Source of the DNA: Ochrobactrum sp. CM-21-5
GTDB taxonomy: Bacteria; Pseudomonadota; Alphaproteobacteria; Rhizobiales; Rhizobiaceae
DNA: 64,000 bases
Assembly: GCF_014253075.1 (NCBI RefSeq)
Contig: NZ_JACLZJ010000004.1
Coordinates: 62,001-126,000, forward strand
Reading direction: 5' to 3'
The notes below the pieces were generated by a model. That model saw only the letters and a list, made by a program, of their open reading frames with translations. It was not told the origin of the DNA and ran no database searches. Below are positions 1-20,239 of the stretch, one piece after another. The position numbers were made by a program, and so were the translations under genes. Within the stretch, counting starts at the first letter, position 1. Each line of letters opens with the position of its first letter.

Positions 1-492
1 CGCGAAGCCGCACCAGATAAATTCCATGAACCTGCACTAAATGATACTTTTGACTACATAGCAGCTCACACTCCAGGGGGAGCGTTGGCTGCTCAGCCTC
101 CCGGTGGCCTAACGCGCTGGATGGCGCTTCCATGGCATGGCGATACGGCGCGTTGCAGAGCGGGCTATGATGCCGATTATGGACAGTACACGCCGGCATA
201 TTGGCCAGCGCGAGTGCCAAATCATGTCTTAACTCAGGAAAGCTATGGCGAAGTGATGAATCGCTTTGGTGACGAAAAGTCTCGACAAGAGGCTTTCAAC
301 ACGCGTGAAAATTGGTGGCGGCATTTATCAGCTAATCCAGACAGCCGCGACCGCGCCGACGAAGAGGAGCAAACCCAGTACATGATAAATAACTATGACA
401 GAATGGGTATTATTCTCCGTACGGACGGGCCCGAAAAATTGTCCGGGGTGCCCGAGGAGCTCTATGTGGAATATTCCAACGTACAAAAATGA
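1..492 (+). CDS. LodA-like CTQ quinoprotein amino-acid oxidase, C-terminal part (5' end outside window)
   Basis: The frame is open from the first base, so only the last 163 residues are present. They contain a GGL-RWM-LPW stretch, a D-TAR-C motif (Cys codon 154-156), then YWPARVPN and a TRENWW stretch. In LodA of Marinomonas mediterranea a Cys (516), a Trp (581) and an Asp four residues before the Cys build the cysteine tryptophylquinone cofactor. The D-x3-C spacing is kept here, and the partner Trp is probably in the TRENWW stretch (inference). Family members oxidise free amino acids (lysine epsilon-oxidase LodA, glycine oxidase GoxA) and release H2O2; LodA is the antimicrobial marinocine. 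The stop overlaps the next start as ATGA, so the gene is coupled to its maturation factor. Substrate specificity cannot be told from this fragment. Confidence 0.8.
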   Translation, partial: REAAPDKFHEPALNDTFDYIAAHTPGGALAAQPPGGLTRWMALPWHGDTARCRAGYDADYGQYTPAYWPARVPNHVLTQESYGEVMNRFGDEKSRQEAFNTRENWWRHLSANPDSRDRADEEEQTQYMINNYDRMGIILRTDGPEKLSGVPEELYVEYSNVQK

Positions 493-1547
493 TATACGAC
501 TGTATTGTAATCGGAGGAGGCGCCGCGGGATCTGCGGCAGCCTTTACTCTTGCGAAAGCAGATTTTCGCGTATTATTGATCGATAGGATTGCCAAAAAAA
601 CATCATACAAGATCGGGGAGAGTTTATCCGGCCAAGGGATTCAGTTGCTGAAAAAAAGCGGCCTTATCGAGCAAGTAAAATCCAACACTTACCTCGAAAA
701 CCCTGGCGATTTATCTTCGTGGGGAACGGACGATTTAATACTAAAGGATTTTATTTTTAGTGCATATGGAAGCGGTTGGCACCTTGATCGGGTTGCCTTT
801 GATAAGTGCCTTCAGGAAGCTGCGCAAATAGCTGGAGCAAAATTGTTCAATGGGCATGTTCGAAAGGTATCGAGGATCAAGCATTTGCATTGGGTCGTTC
901 ATCTCGCGGATATGTCTTTTCAAGCACGATGGTTGATTGATGCCGGCGGTCGTCATGGAGCTGTATCTAGAAGCTTGGGAATAAAGCGCATAAGAGACAA
1001 GCCTTTGATTGCAGTGCACAGCTGGGGTCAAAACCGTTCCAGCGAACCGCGTACACTCGTGGAAGCTGTTTCAGCGGGGTGGTGGTATACTGCTCAACTG
1101 CCCAATAATCGGCGGGTAGTTGCCATGCATACTACGCCAGAGCATGCAAGATCTCTTTTACAAGACCCGCGAGCTTTCAAGAAAGAGATGGCGAATACAA
1201 TACACTTAAAACGGTATTGCAGCTTCAATGACTCGTGGGAGCGCCCGCGTGGCGTGGATGCCAGCGGATCGATGCTTGCAGCGACAGGAGGGGAGGATTG
1301 GATGGCAATTGGTGATGCTGCAATGACGTTTGACCCCTTGTCATCCCATGGCATTCTGAATGCTTTAGCCCACGGGATATTTGGAGCTGAAGCGATTATG
1401 AAGGCTCTGGGTGGATCATATTCCGAGTACGAGTCCCTTACCAAGAAAATGCTTACAAAAAGGCAGAATTATATAAATGATATGTCTTTTATTTACTCAA
1501 CTGAACGGAGATGGAAGAGTGATTTTTGGAAAAGAAAAATAAACTAA
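489..1547 (+). CDS. lodB: LodB-like FAD-dependent maturation enzyme for the CTQ oxidase
   Basis: This 352-residue flavoprotein begins with a Rossmann dinucleotide motif (VIGGGAAGSAAA, residues about 7-18) and has a second FAD motif, GDAAMTFDPLSSHG, near residue 275, as in the tryptophan-halogenase/geranylgeranyl-reductase-like group. LodB proteins are flavoproteins needed to form the cysteine tryptophylquinone of their cognate LodA or GoxA. The ATGA overlap with the upstream oxidase fragment and a length close to known LodB proteins support that role. Codon usage is AT-richer than in the core genes further right, which fits acquired DNA. Without the neighbour it would only be called a generic FAD-dependent oxidoreductase. 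Confidence 0.8.
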   Translation: MIYDCIVIGGGAAGSAAAFTLAKADFRVLLIDRIAKKTSYKIGESLSGQGIQLLKKSGLIEQVKSNTYLENPGDLSSWGTDDLILKDFIFSAYGSGWHLDRVAFDKCLQEAAQIAGAKLFNGHVRKVSRIKHLHWVVHLADMSFQARWLIDAGGRHGAVSRSLGIKRIRDKPLIAVHSWGQNRSSEPRTLVEAVSAGWWYTAQLPNNRRVVAMHTTPEHARSLLQDPRAFKKEMANTIHLKRYCSFNDSWERPRGVDASGSMLAATGGEDWMAIGDAAMTFDPLSSHGILNALAHGIFGAEAIMKALGGSYSEYESLTKKMLTKRQNYINDMSFIYSTERRWKSDFWKRKIN

Positions 1548-1646: not shown

Positions 1647-1817
1647 TGTAGCGACGCACAATAAAGACTGCTTCGACGCGCAATCATCGGGCATTTCCGA
1701 CGCAATTTAAGTGAGATTATCGGAGCCTTCCGGCGCACATTATGTGAGACTGAACGCACGCTATGTGAGACGAACGCGCAATGATGCACTTCTGACGCAA
1801 ATTATTTGAGACGGATC
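1647..1817. repeat. Left terminal inverted repeat with reiterated ~20-bp units
   Basis: This stretch is the inverted counterpart of 9663-9832. It holds about seven units of the type GACGCAAATTATTTGAGACG, with variants such as GACGCAATTTAAGTGAGATT and GGCGCACATTATGTGAGACT. Arrays of short repeats inside long ends are typical transposase binding sites of Tn552/Tn402-like elements. It touches the 3' end of the broken ATPase gene. Confidence 0.8.
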
Positions 1818-2615
1818 ATGTCGGCAATCCGGCCGCCCGCATTTCGTCGAGAAGCTCCTGCGACCGATCGGGTTCCAACTCGCCGCGCAGAAGTTGCCGT
1901 ATTTCTGCCGGTCTGGCCTCGAACTAGTCAGCGAGACTGGCGATATCATAACCGTAACGGGTTAATTGCGGCTCCAGATCGTCGATCTGCCGCGAAAGAC
2001 TGGCCTCGACAATATTGACGTCAATTGGTTTTGCTCCGGCCTCAAATCCGGCTTCGAAAGCCCGCACCAGATACTGACCAATCTGCAGCGGGTTTTCAGT
2101 TTTGCAGCCAGCAAAGTTGCGGCCTCGTCGGTGATCACCATGTCAGGCTCGGTCCCTTCATTCAGCGTGGCTCGTAACACCCAGTCGATATAGTCGCGCT
2201 GGCGGTCTCTGAGCCCGCCGAATTCGAACACGGTCGTGCGGTCACCGATTACCTCCATCTTCGGGCGACGCAGATCGCGCTCCCGTTTTTCGGATTGTTT
2301 TGGGATCGTCACCGTCTTTTCCGTCGACAGGTCATAGAAAAGCGCTGACAGAAGCAGAGGCACAGTGATTTTGGCCTTGTCGATGGCTAATGACCGGGAA
2401 ACAATCACTTTCTTTTCGCGTTCAAGCTCGGCTCGCAACCGTCGCGACAAAACGGTTTTTCCCGAACCGATGATTGCCGTCAGCACGATCAGCCGTCCGC
2501 TCGCAATCGCTGCGCGGATATCGCGGCTCACCTGGATATGGTGTTCGGTCTCGTAGAAACCGGCATCGATGGGTGGCCTGGCAAGGTTGTAATATTGCAT
2601 GACCTCGGTGAGCAT
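1816..2615 (-). pseudogene. TniB/ExeA-like AAA ATPase of the transposon, broken
   Basis: The intact N-terminal part has a Walker A motif (IIGSGKT, about residue 50) and a Walker B-like VITDEAA. It resembles the ATPase subunit that works with Tni/Tn552 DDE transposases in target choice. After LAAKLKT the frame shifts: one missing base near 2090 would restore a run reading PLQIGQYLVRAFEAGFE. That restored frame is cut again by an in-frame TAG at 1924-1926, where a CAG codon would give an uninterrupted product. The ancestral protein would have ended at the TGA at 1816-1818, at about 265 residues. The start overlaps the transposase stop (TGATG). Two independent lesions make a functional product unlikely. 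Confidence 0.8.
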
Positions 2616-4262
2616 CAGTTCATAGCTTCTCTTCGTCCAGGTGGAAAGCGATCCCTGACGGCCGTCAGAATTTCGGCCCGCACCAGAGTTCGCGCGAGCA
2701 ATGCGTCGATGAAAGCCCTGTCATCGTCGGACAATTTGGCCAGCGGCAATCGCACTTCACTGGGAGTGGCACGCCGGGCCGCCAGAGCATTGACAAAGGC
2801 GATCTCATGAAACGGATCAGGCCCTGGAAAGGGCGTGTCGGCACAGGAGAGGAAGGCCGGCTCATAATCACACCGTCTTCGCCCGTGACGGCTGCACGCG
2901 GCAACATAAGCTTGTCGGCCAACAGCGCAATTTTGTCAGCCCGGTCTTCCCGGCGGGATTTCTGGTGTTTTCGGTAACGATGCAGCGGGATTGGGCCACC
3001 GACGGGCTGGTACGGTCCATATCGCTCCTCGCCGGATTCCACCCAAAGCTCCTGATCGAACAATCCCCACCAAACAACAACCGTTTCGCCAGCCAGTTCC
3101 GGGTCGACCTCATAGGTCACGCCAGCGACGGTCAGGCGGCAGTCGATACCGACCTGACGGCGTTCAGGCTCGCGTGCAAAGACACAATAGCGCTCCCAAC
3201 TGCACATTTGGCGGATGCCCTCGGCAGGAAGATGGGTGAACCAGTCATCCAGTCTCGAATGCGGTTCGCTGCGGTGATCACCGGCATTGTAGGTTGTGAT
3301 AAAACGCGCAAGCCAAAGATTGACCTCCGCTTCCGTCTCCGGTTCGTGGAAATGATACAAGGTTTCGTGGGCTTCCTTGACCGTTCGAAAGGGCCGCTCG
3401 ACCTTGCCTTTGGAGCGCGCCGTCGTACGCATGCCGTCCGACTCGGCTGGCATATGCGCAATGACTTCCACACCGAGACTGTCCATAACACGCTTGAACA
3501 CCGCTGATTTGGCGATGGGGCCGTTGTCGAGATAAAGCGTGGTCGGAATCCCCTGAAACGGTTGCATTTCATCGGGCTTGGCCGACATGGCGTTGAACAG
3601 GAATTTGAGAGCTGCTTCGGCATCTTCGCCTTAGACGCAGCGATATTCCTGATAGGCGACACCGCTGCGATCATCCACTACGGAAAACAGCATCAATGTC
3701 GGCGCACCATGCCGGTCCGGATCAATCCATGACGGGGTCTTCAGCTGTTTCAGATCGGACGCTCATATCGAAATGCCAGATTGCATTCGAATACTTCGCC
3801 TGGTAGCGCACAGTCGGCGGCTCGCGAACCATCCGGCCATGATCATAGCCTAGGCGATGAAGATGGCGGTTTACGGTTGATGCCGTGAGGCGTCCAGGCT
3901 CAAGTCTGACAAAACCCTCCGGGGTCTCGACGCTGTGCTTTTCCAGAAGTTCAAGAATCCGATTGGTCGAAAGGTGCCGCCCCTTCCTGTTGGTCGTGCG
4001 CAGTTTCATGGCGGCGACAATCGCGCATAAACGTTCGAGCTCGTCGGTTGCCATGACGCGTGCGATGCCTCGGTCTGAACGAGTCACATCTTTCGGTCGT
4101 CGATCCGGGCGGAGCAGGCGATAGAGCATAGCGCGACTGACTGCATAAAGTTGTGCAGTCGAGTCCATGAGAAGCTTGCGCTCTGGATGGCGTGCCGGAA
4201 GGGCGGCCAGCCGACGGCGCAGAGTAGCCAGCACTTCGCTCGGAACAGCCCCCCCTTGGCAT
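2615..4262 (-). pseudogene. TniA/Tn552-like DDE transposase, broken
   Basis: Pieced together, the reading frames give a protein of about 550 residues: an N-terminal helix-turn-helix region, an rve-type integrase core (IWHFDMS, LYLDNGP, then a SKGKVERPF stretch supplying the DDE acidic residues) and a Mu-type C-terminal domain. At least four lesions are visible. A seven-base C/G run near 4250 puts the ATG overlapping the resolvase stop out of frame; there is a frameshift near 3760, a TAA at 3631-3633 after EYRCV, and another frameshift near 2770. The rebuilt C-terminus ends at the TGA overlapping the ATPase start. The size fits TniA. The gene is dead, so the element would need a transposase supplied in trans. 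Confidence 0.8.
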
Positions 4263-4849
4263 CAGATCTCCCCCGACCCTGGCGGAGCAACGATCTCCAA
4301 ACGAAGATATTGGTAGAGCGTCTCCCGGCTGATGCCGAGTTCTCGTGCGATCTTTGCTTTTTGCTCGCCTGCTGCAATCCGCTGTTTGACCGCGTTGATC
4401 TGCTCTATGCTGAGGGAGCGCTTGCGTCCCCGGTAGGCTCCGCGTCGTTTGGCAAGTGCAATACCCTCGCGCTGTCGTTCCCGCAGCAGGGATCGCTCGA
4501 ATTCCGCAAAAGCCCCCATCACCGACAGCATCAGATGCGCCATGGGGGTATCTTCTCCGGTAAAGGTCAGACCCTCCTTGACAAATTCCACGCGGATCGC
4601 ACGTCCAGTCAGGTTCTGAACAATACGCCTCAGGTCATCCAGATTGCGGGCCAGTCGGTCCATGCTATGGACAACAACCGTGTCTCCCTCACGGGCATAG
4701 GACAAAAGCGCATCCAGTTCCGGCCGCCGGACATCCTTGCCCGAGGCTTTATCGACAAATGTGCGCGTGACATGCATCCCTTCCAGCTGCCGGTCGGGAT
4801 TTTGTTCGAAGCTGCTGACGCGAATATAACCGATGCGTTGACCATTCAT
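4262..4849 (-). CDS. Serine resolvase (TniR/Tn3-type)
   Basis: This 195-residue protein is a complete small serine recombinase. It starts IGYIRVSS with the nucleophile Ser near residue 12, has MDRLARN and EFERSLLRERQREG further on, and ends in a helix-turn-helix (KIARELGISRETLYQYL). Such enzymes resolve cointegrates made by replicative transposition at a res site next to their gene. It is the only intact gene of the transposition module. Its stop overlaps the original start of the transposase (TGATG). The putative res site lies immediately upstream. Confidence 0.9.
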   Translation of the reverse strand: MNGQRIGYIRVSSFEQNPDRQLEGMHVTRTFVDKASGKDVRRPELDALLSYAREGDTVVVHSMDRLARNLDDLRRIVQNLTGRAIRVEFVKEGLTFTGEDTPMAHLMLSVMGAFAEFERSLLRERQREGIALAKRRGAYRGRKRSLSIEQINAVKQRIAAGEQKAKIARELGISRETLYQYLRLEIVAPPGSGEI

Positions 4850-5165: not shown

Positions 5166-5573
5166 ATGCGCATTTTGACATTGGAAGAGATGGTTGCAGT
5201 TTCGGGCGGGGGACGTTTGGATTCCGCAGATCATGATGGTTCAAGTAATAGATCTGGCTCTTCAAGTGGTAAGTCAGGCGGCGGTAATCGTACTTCGGAC
5301 GGCCATGCCCAAAATAGCGGATGGGGCGCTCGAGCAGGTGGTATAGTTGGAGGGCTAGTAGGCTCACTAGCAGGAGGCGCACTTGCTCCGAGCGTTGCTG
5401 TAGCGAAGACAGTGGCCGGTGGAGTGGGAAAGTTCGCGGGCAGTGTGATTGGAAACACCGTCGAGAAGGGATATGTAGCTGGAGCTAATGCTGCTATAGA
5501 TAAAGCGCTGCATGATGCTCAAAACGCCCGAGGACAGGCTGCAGCTAGGGGACGGTGGGGCGGCCATAATTAA
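5166..5573 (+). CDS. Class II microcin-type precursor with double-glycine leader
   Basis: This is a 135-residue precursor. The leader MRILTLEEMVAVSGG (residues 1-15) has the hydrophobic spacing and GG end cut by C39-peptidase exporters, and it closely follows the colicin V leader pattern (known family fact). The core of about 120 residues starts with a Ser/Gly/Asn-rich polar stretch. It is followed near residues 55-100 by a Gly/Ala/Val region with repeated GxxxG spacing (GGIVGGLVGSLAGG and onward), as in pore-forming class II microcins and bacteriocins, and ends in a basic tail. I chose the ATG at 5166 over an upstream start at 5130 because it follows GGAGAGAG and puts the leader at the N-terminus. 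A 12-bp hairpin and a small membrane-protein gene follow, then adaptor and exporter. Antibacterial activity is inferred. Confidence 0.8.
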   Translation: MRILTLEEMVAVSGGGRLDSADHDGSSNRSGSSSGKSGGGNRTSDGHAQNSGWGARAGGIVGGLVGSLAGGALAPSVAVAKTVAGGVGKFAGSVIGNTVEKGYVAGANAAIDKALHDAQNARGQAAARGRWGGHN

Positions 5574-5582
5574 TCTAAGTCT

Positions 5583-5618
5583 CATGACCTGAAGTCCAAT
5601 TGAGTGCTTCAGGTCATG
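5583..5618 (+). terminator. Perfect 12-bp hairpin after the microcin gene
   Basis: CATGACCTGAAG (5583-5594) pairs perfectly with CTTCAGGTCATG (5607-5618) across a 12-base loop. No long U-run follows, so it may be a partial terminator or an mRNA-stabilising hairpin that sets the ratio of precursor to downstream products. Confidence 0.55.
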
Positions 5619-5722
5619 ATGCACACTTTAGCTTGGTTAAATATCGCACGGCAGATAGAACTATACAATGTGGTGAATGACGCCAGCGGGTTCATTGATA
5701 GTCAAACAAGGACATAATAATT

Positions 5723-5956
5723 ATGCTCTCCGCTTTTAAAAACTACATTGATTTTATGCTGGATTATAAAAATAACTTTAATAATGACTGGAAGGAGTAT
5801 TTAAGATTTTTCATTGGCTTCGCCATAGCAACCATTGTAGTCGATCTTATCTTGGAATTGAATTGGGGAGTGGGGGCTATTGTTTTTGTAAGCATATTGT
5901 TATTATTTGATTTTATATGGGTAAATATACTTTTTGTATTGAGCAGAAAGAAATAA
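5723..5956 (+). CDS. Small two-helix membrane protein, candidate microcin immunity protein
   Basis: This 77-residue protein has no family I recognise. A polar, Asn/Lys-rich N-terminus of about 27 residues is followed by two hydrophobic segments (about 29-45 and 49-73) and a short basic tail, RKK. The start follows an AAGGA ribosome-binding site. Class II microcin and bacteriocin immunity genes are typically small, membrane-embedded and directly next to the toxin gene, which is the position here between precursor and exporter. The very AT-rich composition, unlike the exporter genes, is also typical. Immunity is an inference from context; it could instead be an accessory export or toxin-modifying factor. 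Confidence 0.6.
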   Translation: MLSAFKNYIDFMLDYKNNFNNDWKEYLRFFIGFAIATIVVDLILELNWGVGAIVFVSILLLFDFIWVNILFVLSRKK

Positions 5957-6177
5957 TTGTAGTGTATTTGATTTTTATTATGGGGCGAGGACATTTATTG
6001 GGGTATCGCCGCTATCGCCGAATCTAAGCAGTGTACCGCGGTGCAACTGATTTTATAGGCGGCAGCTTATAGCCTGTTACGTCAAAAATGAATGTATTGA
6101 TGATTGTGAAGTGCTGAGAAGCTTTCACTTGAAGCGACGGCTGACGTTTGAAATCTTATTGCAAAAGTCCATACTTT

Positions 6178-7476
6178 ATGAATCAAAGCACCACCCCTCT
6201 ATTTCGCAAAGAAGCCATTGCTGCGCAGCGCGATGCATGGCTCGGTAGGCCGTGTTTAATTCAGCCGATTTCGGTTCAGCTTGCCACTGTGATTGGGGTA
6301 ACGGTGGTTTCGCTTTTCGTGGCTGTCCTAATTTTTGGCGAATACACCCGTCGGGTTCGGGTTCATGGTGCTGTCGTTCCCAGCGCAGGTGTTCTTCATG
6401 TCTTTGCGCCGCAAACGGGACGATTGTTGCAGGCGTTTGCGCCCGATGCTGCTGCGACCGTCGCAGCGGGCGATCCGCTATTTCTGCTCGGGACCGATAC
6501 GACGACCAATCTCGGCGAGACGGAGAGCGTTGTCAAAGACCAGTTGCAGAGCCGTATTGACGAGATTGCGGAAGCGATCAGGCAACGGATAAAATTGGAT
6601 GGAGTGGAAAAACGGGCACTGGCTGAGCGCAGGGGCGCGGTGAAACGCGAGATCGAGCGTGTCGATGCGCAGATTGCCCAGACTGATGTATACATCGCCG
6701 TGCTTCAGCCGCGCGCTGAAAAGTATCGCCAGCTCGTCGACAAAGGTATTATCCTTGAGCGCAGTTTCGAGGTTGCCGAACAAAGTTATATGCAAAACAG
6801 GCAGGAACTTGAAAGTCTGCGTCGGCAGCGGGTTCAGCTGGAAGGTACGGCAGCCGAAATTCGGTCCAGGCTGGACGGATTTGACTCGTCTGCCGCTATC
6901 GCGCTCGGCGAGCTGCGTCAGCGGATTGCCACGCTGAAAGAACAGCTGGCGCAGGCAGAAGCGCGCCGGGCCATCGTTGTTGCTGCACCCGCCAATGGAA
7001 CGGTTGCAGCCGTGCTTGCCCATTCCGGTCAACTGGTTGCTACAGGCACTCCTCTCATATCACTCCTGCCAACTGGCGAGAAAATGGAAATCCACCTGCT
7101 GGCTGACAGCAAGGCCATCGGCTTCATTCGGGAAGGCGCACACGTGCTGTTGCGCTACACAGCCTTTCCCTATCAGAAGTTCGGCCAGTATGGCGGCAGG
7201 GTCACAAAGGTCTCTCATGTCACCTTGAGGCCGACCGAAACGGACGCTGATGCTTTGGCGGCGCAACCACAACCCTCGCAGGCACAGTACCGCATTACCG
7301 TCCAGCCTGACCAACCGAACGTTATGGCCTATGGAATAGCCGAGCCCTTAAGAGCAGGTATGGGGGTGGAAGCCGATCTGCTGCTCGACACCAGACCGCT
7401 TTATCAATGGCTGTTGGAGCCGCTTTACAGCCTGCGGGGACGAGTTATCGAGAAGACCGGTGAAAACCCTAAATGA
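6178..7476 (+). CDS. HlyD/CvaA-family membrane fusion protein (microcin exporter adaptor)
   Basis: This 432-residue periplasmic adaptor starts MNQSTTPLFRKEA and has one transmembrane helix at about residues 36-57. A lipoyl/beta-barrel half, a long coiled-coil region (about 120-260, rich in Glu, Arg and Gln) and a returning lipoyl half with PANGTV follow. The layout and length match CvaA, which links an inner-membrane C39 ABC exporter to TolC. A longer start at 6148 is possible, but it has no better ribosome-binding site and lengthens the cytosolic tail. Its stop overlaps the ABC gene by four bases (ATGA). No TolC-type gene is in the window, so a host outer-membrane channel is presumably used. 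Confidence 0.88.
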   Translation: MNQSTTPLFRKEAIAAQRDAWLGRPCLIQPISVQLATVIGVTVVSLFVAVLIFGEYTRRVRVHGAVVPSAGVLHVFAPQTGRLLQAFAPDAAATVAAGDPLFLLGTDTTTNLGETESVVKDQLQSRIDEIAEAIRQRIKLDGVEKRALAERRGAVKREIERVDAQIAQTDVYIAVLQPRAEKYRQLVDKGIILERSFEVAEQSYMQNRQELESLRRQRVQLEGTAAEIRSRLDGFDSSAAIALGELRQRIATLKEQLAQAEARRAIVVAAPANGTVAAVLAHSGQLVATGTPLISLLPTGEKMEIHLLADSKAIGFIREGAHVLLRYTAFPYQKFGQYGGRVTKVSHVTLRPTETDADALAAQPQPSQAQYRITVQPDQPNVMAYGIAEPLRAGMGVEADLLLDTRPLYQWLLEPLYSLRGRVIEKTGENPK

Positions 7477-9566
7477 AGAACGGTCTGAATTTTTCCCTGT
7501 CGCTAAAGCGCAAATTACCGGTCATCCTCCAAACCGAAGTTGCGGAGTGTGGACTTGCCTGTCTTGCAATGGTCGCAGGCTATTACGGTCACGAGATGGA
7601 TCTCAACACGTTGCGGCGGCGATTTGCAGTGTCGCTGAAAGGATTGTCGCTTCTCGATCTCTCCCGGATCGCGAGCGGACTGTTCCTTGCAACCCGACCA
7701 GTGCGAATTGAGCTTGATGATCTTCCCAGGCTCCAGACGCCCTGCATTCTTCATTGGGAACTGCGTCATTATGTGGTCCTGGAAAAGGTCACAGCGAAGG
7801 GGGCTTATATTCATGACCCGGCCTACGGCAGACGCCTGGTGCCGCTGAAAGAGCTGTCCGATTGTTTTACGGGCGTAGCGCTTGAGCTGTGGCCAGCCGA
7901 AGGGTTTGAGCGCAAGACTGAAAAAGAGCGGATACGGCTGACCGATCTGTTCCGGCGCATCACCGGATTGAAACGTGCCCTGTTCCAGATATTTGCCTTG
8001 TCGCTGTGTCTGGAAGCGATTGCGCTTCTTTCGCCAATCGGTTCGCAAATTATTTTCGACGAAGTCATCGTGGCATCCGACCGCGACCTGTTGACCCTTG
8101 TTGCGATTGGCCTTGCTGTTCTTGTTCTCCTGCAGCTTGTGTTTGGACTGGCACGAACTTGGGCGGTGCTGATCATGGGAACGAACCTGAATCTTCAATG
8201 GACAACGGCGCTTTTTGATCATCTGTTGCGCCTGCCGCTTTCCTGGTTCGAGAAGCGTCATGTCGGCGACGTGGTTTCGCGTTTTGGTTCGCTGGGGCGC
8301 ATTCAGTCGGCGCTGACCACCGATATGGTGAGCGCCGTTCTCGATGGCATCATGACCATCGGGGCCTTTGTCATGATGATGCTTTACGGCGGCTGGCTGA
8401 CAGCAGTCGCTCTCGTTGCGCTTCTGCTGCATCTGGCGCTTCGCGTTGTGGCTTATCAACCATATCGCGCCGCCAATGAAGCGGCGATCATCCAGGGCGC
8501 GAAAGAGGATTCCCATTTCATAGAAACGATCCGGGGTATCGCGAGCATCAAAACAATGGATCTGCATGACCGCCGCCGCGGTGCGTGGCTCACTTTGCTG
8601 GTCAATGCAATCAATGCGGACCTCCGGATCAAGAAGCTCGATATGCTGTTTGGCGTCATAGGCACGTTTCTTGCAACCGCCGATGGCATCATCATGCTGA
8701 TCCTTGGCACACGCTCGGTGATGGACGGTGCCATGACGGTGGGGATGCTGATTGCCTTTCTTGCTTATAAGGACCAGCTTGTCGGTCGTCTTGGGGCTTT
8801 GATCGATCTGGCAATCAGTTTGAAGATGCTCACACTCCACACCGAACGCATCGCGGATATAGCGCTGACACCACCGGAAGCCGCACCTCGACAGTCAGTA
8901 GCAGCGTTGATGCAGATAGAACCCAGCGAGCATTCTCTGCCGTTAACCGTCCAAGATGTGCATTACAGCTATGGAGAGGGGCTACCGAAGGTTCTCAATG
9001 GTATCAGCCTTACGATCGAACCGGGCGAATGTGTCGCCATCACCGGTCCGTCGGGTTGTGGGAAAACCACGCTACTCAAAATCATGGCTGGTCTGATCAC
9101 GCCGAGCGATGGCAAAGTTCTGTTCGGTGAGACGGAAATCAGCCAGATGGGACTTGTGATTTATCGCAGGCACATCGCCACTGTGCTACAGGATGATCAG
9201 CTGTTCGCTGGCACGATTGCTGAAAACATCTCCTGTTTTGATCCGCATGCTGATCAGGCATGGGTCGAGGAATGTGCCCGGATGGTCGCCATGCGCGACG
9301 AAATCATGGCCATGCCGATGCGAAACGATTCCCTTATCGGCGATATGGGAAGTTCCCTGTCTGGCGGACAAAAGCAGCGCCTGTTTCTGGCGCGCGCCCT
9401 TTATCGGCGGCCGTCGATCCTGTTCCTGGATGAAGCGACGAGCGCACTGGATGAAGCCAACGAACAGCGCATCAATGCAGCCGTGTCTTCGCTGAATATC
9501 AGTCGCATACTGGTTGCACATCGCCCTTCGACAATCGCGCAAGCCTCGCGGCGGATAGAACTATAA
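7473..9566 (+). CDS. C39-peptidase ABC exporter, CvaB-like (cuts double-glycine leaders)
   Basis: This 697-residue protein is a complete peptidase-containing ABC transporter. The N-terminal C39 domain has QTEVAECGLAC with catalytic Cys26, a His near 99 (LRHYVVL) and an Asp near 115 (HDPAYG). A six-helix membrane domain spans about residues 155-430. The ATPase domain has Walker A GPSGCGKTT near 525, signature LSGGQ near 628 and Walker B ILFLDEA. Such proteins remove the leader after Gly-Gly and export the core peptide in one step. It should process the precursor at 5166 and, given the near-identical leader, also the one at 11135-11536. The sequence is GC-rich and intact, in contrast to the decayed transposase genes. 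Confidence 0.92.
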   Translation: MKNGLNFSLSLKRKLPVILQTEVAECGLACLAMVAGYYGHEMDLNTLRRRFAVSLKGLSLLDLSRIASGLFLATRPVRIELDDLPRLQTPCILHWELRHYVVLEKVTAKGAYIHDPAYGRRLVPLKELSDCFTGVALELWPAEGFERKTEKERIRLTDLFRRITGLKRALFQIFALSLCLEAIALLSPIGSQIIFDEVIVASDRDLLTLVAIGLAVLVLLQLVFGLARTWAVLIMGTNLNLQWTTALFDHLLRLPLSWFEKRHVGDVVSRFGSLGRIQSALTTDMVSAVLDGIMTIGAFVMMMLYGGWLTAVALVALLLHLALRVVAYQPYRAANEAAIIQGAKEDSHFIETIRGIASIKTMDLHDRRRGAWLTLLVNAINADLRIKKLDMLFGVIGTFLATADGIIMLILGTRSVMDGAMTVGMLIAFLAYKDQLVGRLGALIDLAISLKMLTLHTERIADIALTPPEAAPRQSVAALMQIEPSEHSLPLTVQDVHYSYGEGLPKVLNGISLTIEPGECVAITGPSGCGKTTLLKIMAGLITPSDGKVLFGETEISQMGLVIYRRHIATVLQDDQLFAGTIAENISCFDPHADQAWVEECARMVAMRDEIMAMPMRNDSLIGDMGSSLSGGQKQRLFLARALYRRPSILFLDEATSALDEANEQRINAAVSSLNISRILVAHRPSTIAQASRRIEL

Positions 9567-9854
9567 GCGCATATTATGGGTAAAGCGGAGTTCGAGGTGA
9601 GTATAATTCGACCGGATCGCTTTTCGCGTACCGCGATCGAAAAACGCGGCCGTCACAGACCTATCCGTCTCAAATAATTTGCATCAGAAGCGCATCACTG
9701 TGCGTATGTCTCACATATCGTGCGTTCAGTCTCAGATAATTTGCGCCGGAAGGTTCCGATAATCTCACTTAATTTGCGTCGGAAATGCCCGATGATTGCG
9801 CGTCGGCGCTGTTATCATTGTGCGCCGCGACAGCTACACATAGGAGATGCTCAC
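9567..9854. repeat. Intergenic region containing the right terminal inverted repeat (9663-9832)
   Basis: About 95 bases after the exporter stop show nothing I can name. From 9663 to 9832 the sequence is the inverted copy of 1647-1817, with the same series of ~20-bp units and an outer end reading GCGACA on the plus strand. The outer border near 9832 is set by comparison with the left end and may be off by a few bases. Confidence 0.75.
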
Positions 9855-10198: not shown

Positions 10199-11113
10199 TT
10201 AGCACTTGTGCTTAAAAAGCTCTTCGTAATCAGGGCTGTTCTGGATACCCCGAGAGGATTGTTCTATATCCTTATAATGTAACTGTATGTATTTCAGGTA
10301 TGATTCTAACGTACCGTTTAATATTGATGGATCTTTAGCGTAAACGACTTTCATCAACATAATATCATACAGGCACATATTGGGGACATTCAGTTTAAAT
10401 CGATCCGCCAATTGTCTCGGCGAAAGACTGTCGGTATCCCTTTTCGATCCGGGCAATTCTCGTTCTTCAATAATTGATATAGGTCTTATGTCTACAGTTT
10501 TGTCTGGAGCGAGAAGTAATATTTGAAATAATTCTTGCTGAATTACATTACGCGAAATATCAATTTCAATATTTTTTCGAACATTTATTGATTCGTTTAT
10601 CGCGGCGTATGCTCGAGGTTCTTTTCCTTTATTATATAAAATTTGTGCAAACCCTAAATTGTCATACTTAATATTAAATTCATTAATTCCACTTCTCTTT
10701 AATATAAATGACAAGTCACCTACTATCGTTGATAGAGAATTTTTTTCACCACGATGAATGAAAACATATAAGAATGTATCATCTGCACAATCATCAGGAT
10801 TGGATACGAAATAAAGTTTCGGATTCACCCATGTTTCATTTCGTACTAGATCAAAGAAAATAGATATCCACTTTTTTGTTCTTTCAAGTTCATAACCATA
10901 TACGCAAACTGAAAATTCTGATGAAACTCTATTTATTATATATTTATCATCTTGTCCGGATGCCAGAGTTTCTCTAAAAAATGATGCAAACTTAGAATCT
11001 TCTCTGTCATTTATATTTAGAATAATCAAAAAAAATGTAATTATAATGAATGTAACCGCCACAACAGCGGTCACATGTTTTTTCTTCAATATTGTTGATT
11101 TAGCGTACTTCAC
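10199..11113 (-). CDS. Membrane-anchored protein of unknown function, possibly DUF2927-like
   Basis: This 304-residue, strongly AT-rich gene encodes a protein with one N-terminal transmembrane helix (about residues 13-32) after a basic start, so the rest should lie in the periplasm. The central and C-terminal parts (VIQQELFQILLLAPD, then CLYDIMLMKVVY) recall DUF2927 proteins, whose EELTQ-LGL-ND and LLR-LYD motifs sit at similar spacing; this match is from memory and tentative. It starts 21 bases after the second double-glycine peptide gene on the same strand, so the two are probably cotranscribed. An immunity, maturation or anchoring role for that peptide is possible but unproven. Confidence 0.6.
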   Translation of the reverse strand: MKYAKSTILKKKHVTAVVAVTFIIITFFLIILNINDREDSKFASFFRETLASGQDDKYIINRVSSEFSVCVYGYELERTKKWISIFFDLVRNETWVNPKLYFVSNPDDCADDTFLYVFIHRGEKNSLSTIVGDLSFILKRSGINEFNIKYDNLGFAQILYNKGKEPRAYAAINESINVRKNIEIDISRNVIQQELFQILLLAPDKTVDIRPISIIEERELPGSKRDTDSLSPRQLADRFKLNVPNMCLYDIMLMKVVYAKDPSILNGTLESYLKYIQLHYKDIEQSSRGIQNSPDYEELFKHKC

Positions 11114-11134: not shown

Positions 11135-11536
11135 CTAGCCACCGCCACGACCGCCACTATCACCGCCGCCACGCTCTCGTCCGCCCATATTCCCGCCACC
11201 CCTACCCCCACGGCCGGCGTAAGGATCATGACATGAACCGCAATTAAGCTTACCACTTACGGAAGGCCCACCGGCTCCAAAGCTCACCCCTATTTCAGAA
11301 GAAATCTGTCCTGTAATATGACCAAACGTGCTCGCCCAGCTGTCCTTCGTACCATCACGGTTGCGCTTATCTGCCCGGTTCACTCTGTCCCCATCTGAAC
11401 CAGGGCCATTAGTCGCGCCACCACGTGAACCCGTGGACCCACGTCCTCCACCATAGTTTGCATCGCTTCTACCGGGTGAATCCAGCCCGCCGCCGCCAGA
11501 CACAGCCATCATTTCCTCAAGCGTCAATTCACGCAT
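11135..11536 (-). CDS. Second double-glycine-leader secreted peptide, Gly-rich
   Basis: This 133-residue precursor has the leader MRELTLEEMMAVSGG, differing from the transposon-borne leader at only a few positions. The first core residues (G-x-LDS) are also shared. Upstream, GGGAGAGA precedes the ATG with spacing like that of the other gene. The core of about 118 residues is rich in Gly, Arg, Asp and Ser, with a low-complexity C-terminal tail of GGRGGG and RGGG units. It carries one CGSCH motif (about residues 98-102), which could form a disulfide, bind metal or, less likely without a Sec signal, take haem. It lies outside the transposon and has no exporter of its own nearby, so the exporter at 6178-9566 is the obvious candidate. 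Activity is unknown. Confidence 0.75.
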   Translation of the reverse strand: MRELTLEEMMAVSGGGGLDSPGRSDANYGGGRGSTGSRGGATNGPGSDGDRVNRADKRNRDGTKDSWASTFGHITGQISSEIGVSFGAGGPSVSGKLNCGSCHDPYAGRGGRGGGNMGGRERGGGDSGGRGGG

Positions 11537-11921: not shown

Positions 11922-12929
11922 ATGCGTATTTCAGAATTAATAGGAAGTACACCTTTAGTAGAGATAAGACTACCGTTCTCTGAGGGTAGATTCAATATTT
12001 ATTCAAAACTTGAAATGTTTAATCTTGGTGGCAGTATTAAAGACAGGCCAGCCTATTATATGATAAATAATGCGAGAAAAAATGGATTAGTAAAAGAAAA
12101 TACTCATCTTGTGGAGAGCTCGTCTGGAAATCTGGCTGTTGCAATGGCAATGATCGCGCGACAGATGAACCTCCGTTTTACTGCGATCGTCGACCCCAAT
12201 ATCACTTTGACCAATAGGCGTTTAATCGAAGTGTACGGTGCCGAAGTAGACCTCGTTGAGCAAAAAGACGGGGAAGGCGGTTATCTCCACACACGCATCA
12301 GGCGTGTGCAGACACTTCTTCAAACCATACCGAATTCTGTCTGGCTCAACCAATATGCGAACCCTGATAATCCGGCTTCACATTATTATGGCATAGGCTC
12401 AGAAATCGTTCGCGAAATGCCAACAGAACCTACTCACGCTTTCATCGGAGTCAGTACGTGCGGTACTATAATGGGGATTTCGCGACGACTGAAGGAAACC
12501 TGGCCAAATATAAAAATAGTTGCTGTAGATATAGTAGGTTCAGTTATTTTCGGCCCGTCATCCGATACGCGGCGAATACCCGGTATAGGCGCTAGCAGAA
12601 TTCCCGAGCAATTGGATAGGCGTTGGGTGGATGAAGTCGTTTACGTTAACGATTATGAATCCGTTCAGGGGTGTCGCCTTCTCGTGCAGCATGAGGGCTT
12701 GCTTGCCGGTGGCTCGGCAGGTTCTGTGGTTGCCGCAATCAAAAAATTCTCTTCCAGACTGTCCAAGGGGGCGACAGTCATTACGGTATTTCCAGACCGC
12801 GGAGAGAGGTATCTTGATACCGTATACAATAAGGACTGGCTTCCACCATCCGAGTGTATTCCGTGTCCTTCCGAGTGTTCACATCTTCAGATTAATAGCC
12901 CAGAAAACGCTTTCAAAGCGGCCGTGTAA
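11922..12929 (+). CDS. sbnA: SbnA-like N-(2-amino-2-carboxyethyl)-L-glutamate synthase
   Basis: This 335-residue fold-type II PLP enzyme belongs to the cysteine synthase family. The PLP lysine is Lys40 in GGSIKDRPA, and ESSSGNL binds the substrate carboxylate. In the staphyloferrin B pathway SbnA joins O-phospho-L-serine and L-glutamate to N-(2-amino-2-carboxyethyl)-L-glutamate, the first step to L-2,3-diaminopropionate. A C-terminal extension with two Cys pairs (ECIPCPSEC) is present. Gene order with a downstream SbnB-like dehydrogenase supports this over a plain cysteine synthase. It is the first gene of the operon, directly downstream of the promoter/dyad region. Confidence 0.88.
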   Translation: MRISELIGSTPLVEIRLPFSEGRFNIYSKLEMFNLGGSIKDRPAYYMINNARKNGLVKENTHLVESSSGNLAVAMAMIARQMNLRFTAIVDPNITLTNRRLIEVYGAEVDLVEQKDGEGGYLHTRIRRVQTLLQTIPNSVWLNQYANPDNPASHYYGIGSEIVREMPTEPTHAFIGVSTCGTIMGISRRLKETWPNIKIVAVDIVGSVIFGPSSDTRRIPGIGASRIPEQLDRRWVDEVVYVNDYESVQGCRLLVQHEGLLAGGSAGSVVAAIKKFSSRLSKGATVITVFPDRGERYLDTVYNKDWLPPSECIPCPSECSHLQINSPENAFKAAV

Positions 12930-12969
12930 AGGCTGATAACGCTCTAAACGTCCTTAAAAGGCTAAGTCG

Positions 12970-14013
12970 ATGAATATGATTGAAGCTGTGCGTGCGCGCA
13001 TGGACGTGCCATTGCGTCTTCGTTTTCTGTCGCGGAACGATGTCGCGTCTGTGGGTGGTAATTCTTCTGCGCTTTACATGCAGGCTGTTGAAGACGGCTT
13101 TCGTCTGCACGCTCAACACGATTACGCGCAACCTTTGAAACCTTATCTCCGAAATCCAAACTCCAGTCATATAGCCGACCGAATTATTGCGATGCCAGCC
13201 TGGATTGGTGGGAGTGACCCCATTGCCGGCCTCAAGTGGATCGGCTCAAAGCATGATAATCCTTCAGCTCGATCTCTGGAGCGCGCAAGTGCTGTCATTG
13301 TTCTGAACGATAACGAGACCCATTTTCCGATCGCCATCATGGAAGCCGCACGAATAAGCGCGCTACGCACAGCGGCGGTGACAGGTGTCGCTGCCCGTCA
13401 TCTGGCAAAAAAAGACTTCACCGAAGCCACTGTCATTGGCTGCGGTCCCATCGGGCGGGCACAAGTTCAGATGTTTGGCGAGCAGTTTCCGTCGCTTAAA
13501 CGAATTCATCTATTCGACAAGCAGGCAGCGGCAATTGAGTTTTTGCGCCGTTGGATAGAAGAAAACCATGCAGCGATAGAAGTCGTGCGACATGAGAATG
13601 CACGATCTGCCGTTGAACAAGGTGATGTGGTTGTTACTGCAACGGTGACGGACCAGCCTTATATTTCCTTCGACTGGCTCAAGACCGGAGCTTTTCTTTC
13701 AAATATCTCCATCATGGATGTGAAAAAGGAAGTTTTTCTGCGTGCCGATAAAGTAGTTGTCGACGATTGGGACCAATGCAATCGTGAAAAAAAGATCATC
13801 AATCAGCTAGTGGAAGAGGGTACTTTCTCACGTGAAAAGCTCCATGCAGAAATCGGTGAGATTGTTAGCGGTGCCAAGCCGGGCCGTGAAAACAACCGAG
13901 AAATAATCTTGCTCAATCCCATGGGGATGGCCATTGATGACATTGTATGCGCAAGAGCGATCCTTCGGGCGGCAGAGAAGAACGCCGTCGGTACATTAGT
14001 GGATCTTTTCTGA
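12970..14013 (+). CDS. sbnB: SbnB-like N-(2-amino-2-carboxyethyl)-L-glutamate dehydrogenase
   Basis: This 347-residue protein is of the ornithine cyclodeaminase/mu-crystallin family, with an NAD-binding motif VIGCGPIGRAQ near residue 156. SbnB oxidatively cleaves the SbnA product to L-2,3-diaminopropionate plus 2-oxoglutarate, and both become building blocks of staphyloferrin B. The pairing sbnA-sbnB followed by NIS synthetases makes this role much more likely than ornithine cyclodeaminase. Its TGA overlaps the start of the next gene (TGATG), so the two are translationally coupled. Confidence 0.88.
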   Translation: MNMIEAVRARMDVPLRLRFLSRNDVASVGGNSSALYMQAVEDGFRLHAQHDYAQPLKPYLRNPNSSHIADRIIAMPAWIGGSDPIAGLKWIGSKHDNPSARSLERASAVIVLNDNETHFPIAIMEAARISALRTAAVTGVAARHLAKKDFTEATVIGCGPIGRAQVQMFGEQFPSLKRIHLFDKQAAAIEFLRRWIEENHAAIEVVRHENARSAVEQGDVVVTATVTDQPYISFDWLKTGAFLSNISIMDVKKEVFLRADKVVVDDWDQCNREKKIINQLVEEGTFSREKLHAEIGEIVSGAKPGRENNREIILLNPMGMAIDDIVCARAILRAAEKNAVGTLVDLF

Positions 14014-15776
14014 TGAATCAGATTCAGCCGATCCATACACAAACCCCTGATGATGGTTTTATTTTTGATGATCTCCTGGATGCCGTATGGACAGAAGATC
14101 TAGGAGAGTTTCGCACAAAGGTTCTTGCTGCGGCCAACGGGCGGCGGGCGGTCGTCACCGTCAGCAAGGCTGAGCTGACGATCTCTCTTTCGAGGGAGAC
14201 TTGGCGAGATGAAGATCGGCCATGTTCGGTTAATTATGCCGATACTGGCATGCCCGTTCATTCGTCGGAGTTTCTTTGGCTGGTACTCACCAGTTTGCCT
14301 GATCTGGATTTGTATATACTGGACAGATCCATGAAACAATTGGCGGATGCGTTGAGAAATCAGCTGCTTTTTGACGGGCTTGCTTCCAGAATTGAACATG
14401 CTACGCAAGCAATGGGATCGATTGGAAATGCTCTTCTATGGGAGCAATTGACGGCTTGGAAAGACCGTCCCTTCCATCCTTATTCGCGCTCGCGCGGGAA
14501 TTGGACTAAGCACGACGTTAAACGTTATGGAGCCGAGGAAGGCGCTCTTTTTGCCTTAAGATGGTGCGCAATTGATGCCTCGCATGTCCTTCCGTCTCCG
14601 AAAGCACGGCAGGTCGGCCCCGCACCATCCATCCTCAGCGACACACAACTGACCATACTCAATGAAGAGATGGTGAGCCGGAGTATTGCAGCTTCTCATA
14701 TAGCGCTTCCCGTACACCCCTGGCATGCCGACCATGTCTTGAAGCACAAATTTGCAAATGAGCTAGACGACAAGAAAATAATTGTCCTAGATTTTCAGGG
14801 GCCGTTGGTGGCGGCAACGTCCTCATTACGGACAGTAGTGTCACCTGCGACACCTTCGCGTCATATTAAATTACCCTTGGGCGTGGAGACGCTGGGCGTG
14901 CGGCGGCTTCTTAGTGCGCAATCACTGCACAACGGCTTGAAAGGGGCTGAAGTGCTTTCGGCGGCTTTAAAGCTCCGACCCTCTCTAGGTCGTGTTGCGC
15001 AAATTGCAGATGAAACACAATTCTGGACTTTCACAGAGAGTTCCAAGGATATTTTGGCAGAACGCACGGCGTATCTGGGATGTGTCATTCGCGATATTCC
15101 CATAAGTGACAATAGCAGTCTCATGCCTCTTGCTGCTTTTGCAGTATCTACGAAAGATCAAATCCCTTTCGCTTTCAGGGCAATATTGGATTGTCATCCT
15201 GAGCTGATGCTCGAGGATGTTTTATGGGACCTTTTTGATTTATTGACCGGATTTGCGATTGAGGCGCTCGGTTGCGGTTTTATACCGGAAATGCACGGTC
15301 AAAACGTTTTGGTCGAACTAACGAATGGACGGCCGACCGGAATTATCTTGCGTGATCATGATACGGTCAGGTGTCTGCCCGCCGTTCTTGCTGAAAACTG
15401 TCTTCCCGTTCCTGATTATATCATCAAGGATCCAAAGAGAGCCACCATGCTCTTATCCAGGTGCGAGGATCTCTTCGCTTACGGGCAAACCCTTCTTTTC
15501 GATGTAGCATTTCGCGCTATCTGCCGCGCGTTGGAAAAAGCAGGCGCCATAGACATGATTAACACCCGGCAAAAACTCAGGCGGCTGACACAAAGGCATA
15601 TTTCGGATCGGCAGATGCCAACAATGTTGCGCAAGAACATGAGAGCGGCTTTCCTCGAACAGCAGCAATGGCCATTCAAAGAGATATTGCGGCCGCTTCT
15701 GAATACCGGGCAACTTGGTCTGGGTATGCCCAGCAGATTAGGTAACGCAACCAATCCACTGCGACAGAAGATGTGA
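14013..15776 (+). CDS. sbnC: NIS siderophore synthetase, SbnC-like
   Basis: This 587-residue IucA/IucC-family ATP-dependent condensing enzyme starts at the ATG overlapping the sbnB stop; an upstream in-frame start at 13947 would lie inside sbnB and is rejected. Family motifs are present: LPVHPWHADH near 235 and MHGQNVLVEL near 430. The usual GHPxHPxxKxRxG ATP-site motif reads DRPFHPYSRSRGNW here, so it is divergent. In staphyloferrin B assembly SbnC makes the last condensation, with 2-oxoglutarate. The assignment rests on gene order (A-B-C) and length (584 residues in S. aureus). Which synthetase does which step cannot be proved from sequence alone. Confidence 0.8.
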   Translation: MNQIQPIHTQTPDDGFIFDDLLDAVWTEDLGEFRTKVLAAANGRRAVVTVSKAELTISLSRETWRDEDRPCSVNYADTGMPVHSSEFLWLVLTSLPDLDLYILDRSMKQLADALRNQLLFDGLASRIEHATQAMGSIGNALLWEQLTAWKDRPFHPYSRSRGNWTKHDVKRYGAEEGALFALRWCAIDASHVLPSPKARQVGPAPSILSDTQLTILNEEMVSRSIAASHIALPVHPWHADHVLKHKFANELDDKKIIVLDFQGPLVAATSSLRTVVSPATPSRHIKLPLGVETLGVRRLLSAQSLHNGLKGAEVLSAALKLRPSLGRVAQIADETQFWTFTESSKDILAERTAYLGCVIRDIPISDNSSLMPLAAFAVSTKDQIPFAFRAILDCHPELMLEDVLWDLFDLLTGFAIEALGCGFIPEMHGQNVLVELTNGRPTGIILRDHDTVRCLPAVLAENCLPVPDYIIKDPKRATMLLSRCEDLFAYGQTLLFDVAFRAICRALEKAGAIDMINTRQKLRRLTQRHISDRQMPTMLRKNMRAAFLEQQQWPFKEILRPLLNTGQLGLGMPSRLGNATNPLRQKM

Positions 15777-15933
15777 AACCGTGGCCGTTGGTTTTTCTGA
15801 TGGAATTCAGTGCAGTGACCACCTCCTTGAAGAATAGGGGCGTTGTTGTCTGATAGTGACGGTGCGATGGTGGCGGCTTTGCGCTCGTCCGGTCTGGCGT
15901 GGTCCCTTTTCCTTTTACCGAAGGATGATTTTC
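15777..15933. other. 157-bp gap at the position of the missing exporter gene sbnD
   Basis: Every other junction of this operon is tight or overlapping. Here 157 bases separate sbnC and sbnE, exactly where S. aureus has the exporter gene sbnD. No major-facilitator remnant can be read in any frame. The stretch contains only short frames and an AAGGA ribosome-binding site just before sbnE. It could be a deletion scar or hold an internal promoter. Confidence 0.5.
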
Positions 15934-20236: not shown

Positions 20237-20239
20237 AAA

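What the first reader, a model, noticed from the sequence alone, without database searches (positions are those of the whole stretch)
5166..9566. Transposon-borne class II microcin system in an alphaproteobacterium
A ColV-like double-glycine precursor with a GxxxG-rich core, a small membrane protein, a CvaA-like adaptor and a CvaB-like C39 exporter sit in one direction between the res region and the right end of a Tni-type element. Characterised class II microcins are nearly all from Enterobacteriaceae, so a mobile version in the Brucella/Ochrobactrum group would be new to me. Precursor and membrane-protein genes are AT-rich while the exporter is not, as often seen in bacteriocin islands.
Basis: partly seen in the sequence, partly recalled or inferred. 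Interest (0 to 1): 0.88.

Follow-up and report, generated by a model that had tools for sequence, protein, structure and literature searches.

The report
Mobile bacteriocin system with swappable cassettes
A damaged jumping element carries a small secreted toxin-like protein, its likely protective partner and their export pump, and relatives suggest that toxin and partner are exchanged together as interchangeable cassettes; the general kind of system is already known from other bacteria.

Summary
The observation largely holds. A 135-aa double-glycine precursor (5166-5573), a 77-aa two-TM protein (5723-5956), an HlyD-type adaptor and an intact C39 exporter lie inside 170-nt inverted repeats (1647-1816/9663-9832) of a resolvase-transposase-ATPase element whose transposase is broken. 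The precursor is not AT-rich; only the partner genes are.

Twelve open precursor frames from six genomes share the leader type, and five share a GDSxGRG tail, around variable cores. Cores and neighbouring partners covary overall (Mantel r 0.80, 1/20000; weaker when scores are capped), though only 3 of 9 similar-core pairs have similar partners. A same-genus genome holds three cassettes away from its (broken) exporter. The 304-aa partner exceeds the 51-216 aa reported for class II microcin immunity proteins and has no Pfam or PHROGs match.

Precedents lower novelty: Caulobacter Cdz and Cdz-like systems, and Acinetobacter Mcc17978 on a Tn7-like transposon with a siderophore locus. I call it a new variant of a known kind (class II microcin/Cdz-type bacteriocin). 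Killing, export and immunity are inferred, not shown.

The parts
5166..5573 (+). Precursor A, 135 aa: 15-aa double-glycine leader, Ser/Gly linker, glycine-zipper core; mature 120 aa, 11.4 kDa
5723..5956 (+). 77-aa protein with two TM-like segments; candidate immunity protein of A (AT-rich, GC 0.303)
   Evidence: position between precursor and adaptor as in G267 and as mcaB in Mcc17978
6178..7476 (+). HlyD-type membrane fusion protein (upstream TTG start at 6148 also possible)
   Evidence: HlyD_3; type_I_hlyD, below its cut-off
7473..9566 (+). C39 peptidase ABC exporter, 697 aa; Cys/His/Asp motifs, Walker A, signature and Walker B present
   Evidence: nearest solved chain an ABC-type bacteriocin transporter, 4ry2, E 2.3e-85
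11135..11536 (-). Precursor B, 133 aa, leader MRELTLEEMMAVSGG, Gly-rich core with one CxxC, tail RERGGGDSGGRGGG; outside the element
10199..11113 (-). 304-aa protein, one N-terminal TM-like segment and a large soluble part; candidate immunity or accessory protein of B (GC 0.327)
   Evidence: no Pfam match at E <= 1, three NCBIfam matches far below cut-off, no PHROGs match
1647..1816 (+). Left terminal inverted repeat, 170 nt, with internal 18-nt repeats
9663..9832 (-). Right terminal inverted repeat, 89% complementary to the left one; no 5-bp target duplication seen
4262..4849 (-). Serine resolvase (tniR-like)
2665..4234 (-). DDE transposase gene, broken: reads in pieces in different frames
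   Evidence: piece 2668-3588 matched to annotated plasmid transposases, one open gene in relatives
1962..2615 (-). AAA-type ATPase (tniB-like), 217 aa, shorter than the 323 aa of two intact relatives
   Evidence: only weak, sub-cut-off Pfam AAA matches

Best explanation
This is a bacteriocin production system of the class II microcin/Cdz kind. Each precursor carries a double-glycine leader that the C39 domain of the exporter recognises and cuts while the core is pumped out through the adaptor and a host TolC-like channel (by homology). The glycine-zipper core of A most likely inserts into the inner membrane of competitors, and the adjacent 77-aa membrane protein protects the producer (inferred). 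Across relatives the export genes stay similar while cores and neighbouring partners change, often together, so the locus is a changeable weapon: constant leader type and often constant tail, variable core plus cognate immunity. Cassette B, outside the element, would be exported in trans by the same pump, the only canonical C39 exporter found in this genome; its larger, probably periplasm-facing partner suggests a different target or protection mode. The export-plus-A unit is boxed by the ends of a tni-type element that has since lost an intact transposase.
For: Leader and exporter. Two C39 matches in the whole genome, of which the second lacks the Cys motif by eye. OEP/TolC family present in the genome. 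Same gene order precursor, TM protein, adaptor, exporter in G267, with small ORFs between; exporter followed by three precursors, one of them apparently broken, each with a membrane protein downstream, in Pseudochrobactrum L003. Core/partner covariation over 12 open precursors: Mantel r 0.80, 1 of 20000 permutations; scores capped at 10, r 0.48, 26 of 20000; capped and without the three B-type pairs, r 0.53, 113 of 20000. Matching pairs: L003_1 with G267d, L003_3 with G267a, B with G267b. The 304-aa partner is found in 2 of 35 genus genomes, the same two that hold precursors. The G267c cassette sits beside an adaptor remnant.
Against: No activity, export or immunity is shown. Of 9 core pairs with z above 5, only 3 have partners with z above 5 (the pairs named above); A resembles L003_1 (z 10.6) yet their partners do not match (z -0.3), and the same holds for A, L003_1 and G267d with G783, B with G672a and G206 with G672b; conversely G267c has a B-type partner (z 25.7 and 23.8) with a core of z only 2.4 and 3.7. 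Gly-rich composition may inflate core scores, untrimmed heads may too, and the permutations do not correct for kinship. The genes next to G672a (PAP2) and G672b (Sel1) look like ordinary genes. Mature mass 11.4 kDa exceeds the microcin limit. Precursor-profile matches occur in only 7 of 394 family genomes, two of them not inspected. In G267 the exporter is broken while cassettes persist, which could mean retained immunity only, or an assembly error.
Confidence: 0.75

Rival explanations
1. A Cdz-type contact-dependent system (not exclusive of the main reading): the glycine-zipper cores stay on the producer surface as aggregates and kill on contact rather than diffusing.
For: Precursor A meets the four sequence criteria given for Cdz-like toxins: length 60-151, G[GAS] leader, uninterrupted glycine zipper, polar or charged C-terminus. 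Caulobacter is also an alphaproteobacterium; such loci are described as often transposase-flanked.
Against: B and G267b have 0 uninterrupted zippers, G267c none at all. The leader resembles that of microcin V, which diffuses (recalled). Surface retention cannot be seen from sequence.
Confidence: 0.35
2. A class IIb-like microcin whose Gly/Ser tail receives a siderophore or docks on a siderophore receptor, linked to the siderophore cluster beginning at 11922.
For: GDSxGRG tail in 5 of 12 precursors; a seven-gene siderophore biosynthesis run starts 385 nt from precursor B, divergently; Mcc17978 shares its transposon with a siderophore locus and is iron-regulated.
Against: A lacks the tail; the tail of B has one Ser; no modifying genes seen next to the cluster; no HlyC-type match in the genome, but that control rang in no genome and so shows nothing; no iron-box excess; no siderophore genes noticed beside L003 or G267a when reading their ORF lists.
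Confidence: 0.08
3. The cores are not toxins but secreted surface, adhesive or signalling proteins, and the small membrane proteins are accessory.
For: Gly-rich cores are aggregation-prone in principle; I know of no assay of them; 6 of 9 similar-core pairs have unlike neighbours.
Against: Overall core-partner covariation suits toxin-immunity pairs better than a conserved adhesin or pheromone; no receptor kinase or adhesin genes noticed beside the cluster in the window, L003 or G267.
Confidence: 0.12
4. A decaying remnant: the element is dead and the genes are no longer used.
For: Transposase and ATPase broken or shortened; a related precursor apparently broken in L003; exporter broken in G267.
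Against: Both precursors, both partners, adaptor and exporter are open in this genome.
Confidence: 0.12

Closest known systems
Mcc17978 (mcaABCD) of Acinetobacter baumannii on Tn7-like Tn6552 (PMC10333792, passages read)
   Same: Order precursor, immunity gene, HlyD, C39 exporter; transposon-borne; siderophore locus on the same element; outside Enterobacteriaceae
   Different: Cupin-like immunity protein, leader ending GA, siderophore genes inside the element; here the siderophore genes lie outside the repeats, the element is broken, and a second cassette sits outside it
CdzABCDI of Caulobacter crescentus and Cdz-like systems (PMC5380434, abstract and sections 5, 13, 17, 18, 32 read)
   Same: Alphaproteobacterial type I exporter, small glycine-zipper proteins, small TM immunity protein, horizontal transfer, variable toxins beside more similar exporters
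   Different: CdzC/D are 86 and 84 aa and both are needed; here 133-135-aa precursors with a constant tail in some, one partner of 304 aa, and B without an uninterrupted zipper. CdzC/D sequences were not compared here
Microcin V (ColV) and class IIa microcins (PMC10233263, passages)
   Same: 15-18-aa double-glycine leader, C39 exporter, adaptor, TolC, adjacent immunity protein of 51-216 aa (77 aa for A)
   Different: Mature 11.4 kDa rather than about 5-10; no Cys in A; the 304-aa partner of B lies above the reported immunity size range
Plasmid-borne recombinase-transposase-AAA ATPase elements, e.g. NZ_MT039220.1 and NZ_CP155004.1
   Same: Same three genes in the same order; transposase piece 66-72% identical in the 12 of 755 records listed
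   Different: Open genes there, other cargo; broken here, with the bacteriocin genes as cargo

Membership tests
Class II microcin | N-terminal double-glycine leader of 15-18 aa | tested here: met
   MRILTLEEMVAVSGG and MRELTLEEMMAVSGG, 15 aa
Class II microcin | Mature size up to about 10 kDa | tested here: inconclusive
Class II microcin | C39 exporter with Cys/His/Asp triad, plus MFP and TolC | tested here: met
   Motifs ECG, HYVV and HDP in the C39 domain (by motif, not by alignment to CvaB); MFP; OEP family in genome
Class II microcin | Adjacent immunity protein, typically small and membrane-bound | tested here: inconclusive
   77 aa, two TM-like segments; protection itself untested
Class II microcin | Antibacterial activity | not testable with these tools
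   No assay possible
Class IIb (siderophore) microcin | Gly/Ser-rich C-terminus and modification genes | tested here: inconclusive
   A lacks the tail; B has a Gly-rich tail with one Ser; HlyC-family search negative but its control rang in no genome
Cdz-like toxin | 60-151 aa, G[GAS] leader, uninterrupted glycine zipper, polar or charged C-terminus | tested here: met
   Precursor A only; B has no uninterrupted zipper, so B does not meet it
Cdz-like toxin | Contact-dependent killing from surface aggregates | not testable with these tools
   Needs competition assays
tni-type transposon | Resolvase, transposase and AAA ATPase genes between terminal inverted repeats | tested here: met
tni-type transposon | Intact transposase and target-site duplication | tested here: not met
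   Transposase reads in pieces; no matching 5-bp flanks at the ends as drawn

The most novel reading that the evidence does not exclude
A polymorphic bacteriocin repertoire in the Brucella/Ochrobactrum group in which constant leader and tail modules frame interchangeable core-immunity cassettes that are scattered away from one shared exporter, including a type whose protector is a large periplasm-facing protein of an undescribed family, implying a periplasmic target rather than the inner membrane.
Probability: 0.3. Interest if true: 0.65.

Novelty: new variant of a known kind. Interest (0 to 1): 0.45.

Why it matters
Validated class II microcins come mostly from E. coli, and immunity proteins cannot yet be located by conserved sequence features (PMC9746304 abstract and passages, PMC10233263 passages). 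This family gives matched core-partner pairs across genera, so cognate immunity may become predictable by covariation, and it offers a 304-aa candidate beyond the 250-aa cut-off used in one mining pipeline, a gap its authors point out themselves.

Tried and rejected
Siderophore-conjugated microcin: no modifying genes seen nearby, HlyC search uninformative (control silent), no Irr/Fur-box excess (2 matches against 1.34 expected; 4 against 2.40; both box patterns recalled). Sequence search of the PDB with the precursor profile gave nothing at E <= 1, and with the 304-aa profile eight chance-level matches, seven VapC and one GAPDH, best E 0.17. Precursors A and B and the 304-aa protein found no match in 72,556 plasmid records, nor did the DNA of the whole element; the 304-aa profile confirmed no relative among 320 candidate stretches in viral contigs. 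16S identification failed. PADLOC gave one weak match (E 0.022) and PHROGs none. My first leader DNA pattern was too strict and missed precursor B. Precursor-profile hits in G659 and G747 were not inspected. L003 precursor 2 was dropped from the 12 because its frame looks broken. Two of the 12 (G267c, G783) were flagged with a stop inside the profile match; I counted their shorter open frames. The heads of G206, G267c, G672b and G783 were not trimmed by my pattern before the covariation test. More distant precursors (for example Acinetobacter, Moraxella and Pelagibacterium loci) were not put into that test.
Full report
What is there. The window is G000:C23:62001-126000 of a 4.28-Mb, 28-contig genome. 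Between 170-nt inverted repeats at 1647-1816 and 9663-9832 lie, on the minus strand, a resolvase, a transposase in pieces and an AAA-type ATPase, and on the plus strand precursor A, a 77-aa membrane protein, an adaptor and a C39 exporter. Two relatives with the same three mobility genes on named plasmids have a single 1.65-1.67-kb transposase gene and a 972-bp ATPase gene; here both are broken or shortened, so the element was probably mobile once. I found no 5-bp duplication at its ends.

At 11135-11536 on the minus strand, 1.3 kb beyond the right repeat, is a second precursor with leader MRELTLEEMMAVSGG, followed by a 304-aa protein with one N-terminal TM-like segment. These two are the only matches of the leader pattern in the window; 100 shuffles gave none. 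The exporter is one of two C39 matches in the genome; the other (C10) is a longer frame that lacks the ECG cysteine motif on inspection. If B is exported, it is most simply through this pump.

Relatives. In 35 genomes of the genus (own included), 4 have the exporter at E <= 1e-100, of which only G267 is close (88 and 79% in two pieces; G016 52%, G271 42%); 2 have precursors by profile and the same 2 have the 304-aa protein. In 394 family genomes, 7 have precursor-profile matches, five of which I inspected; in 247, 12 have the exporter. In 397 order genomes the 304-aa profile finds the own genome and one weak match, to a 323-aa protein with no precursor noticed near it. Pseudochrobactrum L003 (exporter 76% identical) has three precursors in a row, one with an apparently broken frame, each followed by a membrane protein, beside genes I read as kbl and tdh, and I saw no such element there. 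G267 (same genus) has precursor, 76-aa TM protein, adaptor and a broken exporter at another site, and three further cassettes elsewhere: two with 304-aa-type partners (59% and about 22% identical) and one with a 56-aa hydrophobic protein. One of these sits next to an adaptor remnant, which suggests that the 304-aa gene takes the place normally held by the small immunity gene. G267 has only four contigs and may be a long-read assembly with indel errors, so its break is stated with caution. In a tree of 73 exporters the window groups with L003 and then G206 (support 100 each).

Covariation. For 12 open precursors (two in this window, four in G267, two in L003, one each in G206 and G783, two in G672) I compared cores, after trimming leader and, where my pattern matched, head and tail, with the downstream neighbour I took as partner. 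Overall, similar cores go with similar partners: Mantel r 0.80, 1 of 20000 permutations; with scores capped at 10, r 0.48, 26 of 20000; capped and without the three B-type pairs, r 0.53, 113 of 20000. The signal rests on three strong pairs (B/G267b, G267a/L003_3, L003_1/G267d). Against it, 6 of the 9 core pairs with z above 5 have unlike partners, A/L003_1 among them, and both G267c comparisons show like partners with weakly alike cores. The permutations do not correct for kinship.

Modules. At DNA level the 5' ends are alike within L003 (L003_1 and L003_3, 88% over 75 nt) and among the dispersed G267 cassettes (b and d, 87% over 86 nt; c and d, 91% over 44 nt), but A and B do not align with each other, and G267a is only 72% like G267d. 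The exporter-linked precursors A, G267a and those of L003 begin MRIL; B, G267b and G267d begin MREL, G267c MRVL. Two of the three matching core pairs align across genomes at DNA level (B/G267b, 73% over 266 nt; G267a/L003_3, 75% over 53 nt), and tails align between different core types (for example G267a/G267d, 83% over 42 nt; B/L003_1, 95% over 21 nt), which fits module exchange. The GDSxGRG tail is in 5 of 12.

Mechanism. Shown from sequence: leader, exporter motifs, adaptor, TM-like segments by hydropathy, covariation. From established knowledge of the family: leader cleavage by the C39 domain during export through adaptor and TolC (PMC10233263 passages). Inferred: membrane insertion of the zipper cores, immunity by the partners, export of B in trans. 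Two pairs of microcins that share an export system are known (PMC9746304 passages). The 304-aa protein faces the periplasm if its N-terminal segment anchors it, and the distant 297-aa relative looks secreted by its N-terminus (by eye); a periplasmic target for B is therefore possible but unproven.

Comparison and novelty. Papers: PMC5380434 (abstract, sections 5, 13, 17, 18, 32), PMC9746304 (abstract and passages), PMC10233263, PMC13174018, PMC10333792, PMC12546727 and PMC11630599 (passages and abstract openings in listings), PMC11494933 (abstract and outline). Cdz-like systems are described as widespread in proteobacteria, often flanked by transposases, with toxins more variable than secretion systems; Mcc17978 is a validated transposon-borne class II microcin with the same gene order. 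Searches for microcin or bacteriocin with Ochrobactrum (6 of 6 papers listed), Brucella (11 of 11), Brucellaceae or Pseudochrobactrum (20 of 150) and Rhizobiales (12 of 13) listed no paper on such a system in this group, judged from titles and abstract openings; most subscription journals are not held. So the kind is known; the family, its dispersed cassettes and the oversized partner are the part for which I found no report.

Noticed in passing
window 11922-21466: Siderophore biosynthesis run: PALP, ornithine cyclodeaminase, three IucA/IucC synthetases, HpcH/HpaI aldolase and a PLP decarboxylase, a staphyloferrin-B-like set (name recalled), followed on the other strand by FecCD and, further on, a TonB receptor.
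   Followed up: partly
window 85-1547: C-terminal part of a GoxA/LodA-like CTQ amino-acid oxidase at the window's edge and a GoxB/LodB-like maturase directly left of the element; oxidases of this family make hydrogen peroxide and can be antimicrobial (PMC4417212, abstract opening seen). The rest of the oxidase gene upstream was not looked for.
   Followed up: no
window 5583-5618: Hairpin-like inverted repeat (12-nt arms) just after the stop of precursor A, before the 77-aa gene, which could set the ratio of precursor to partner mRNA (read by eye; not folded).
   Followed up: no
L147 and L148 (G672): Two more precursors with the same leader type on short contigs, one with a core like the broken L003 precursor 2; neighbours are PAP2 and Sel1 proteins.
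   Followed up: partly
L132 4551-5574 (G249): Two inverted stretches 78 and 81% alike to the element's left end, about 1 kb apart, enclosing a gene pair that I read as RelE-like toxin and antitoxin; possibly a small relative of the element.
   Followed up: partly
L134 (G000:C10): Second C39-type exporter of the genome, without the cysteine motif, beside a large ORF and an adaptor; looks like an RTX-type secretion locus.
   Followed up: partly
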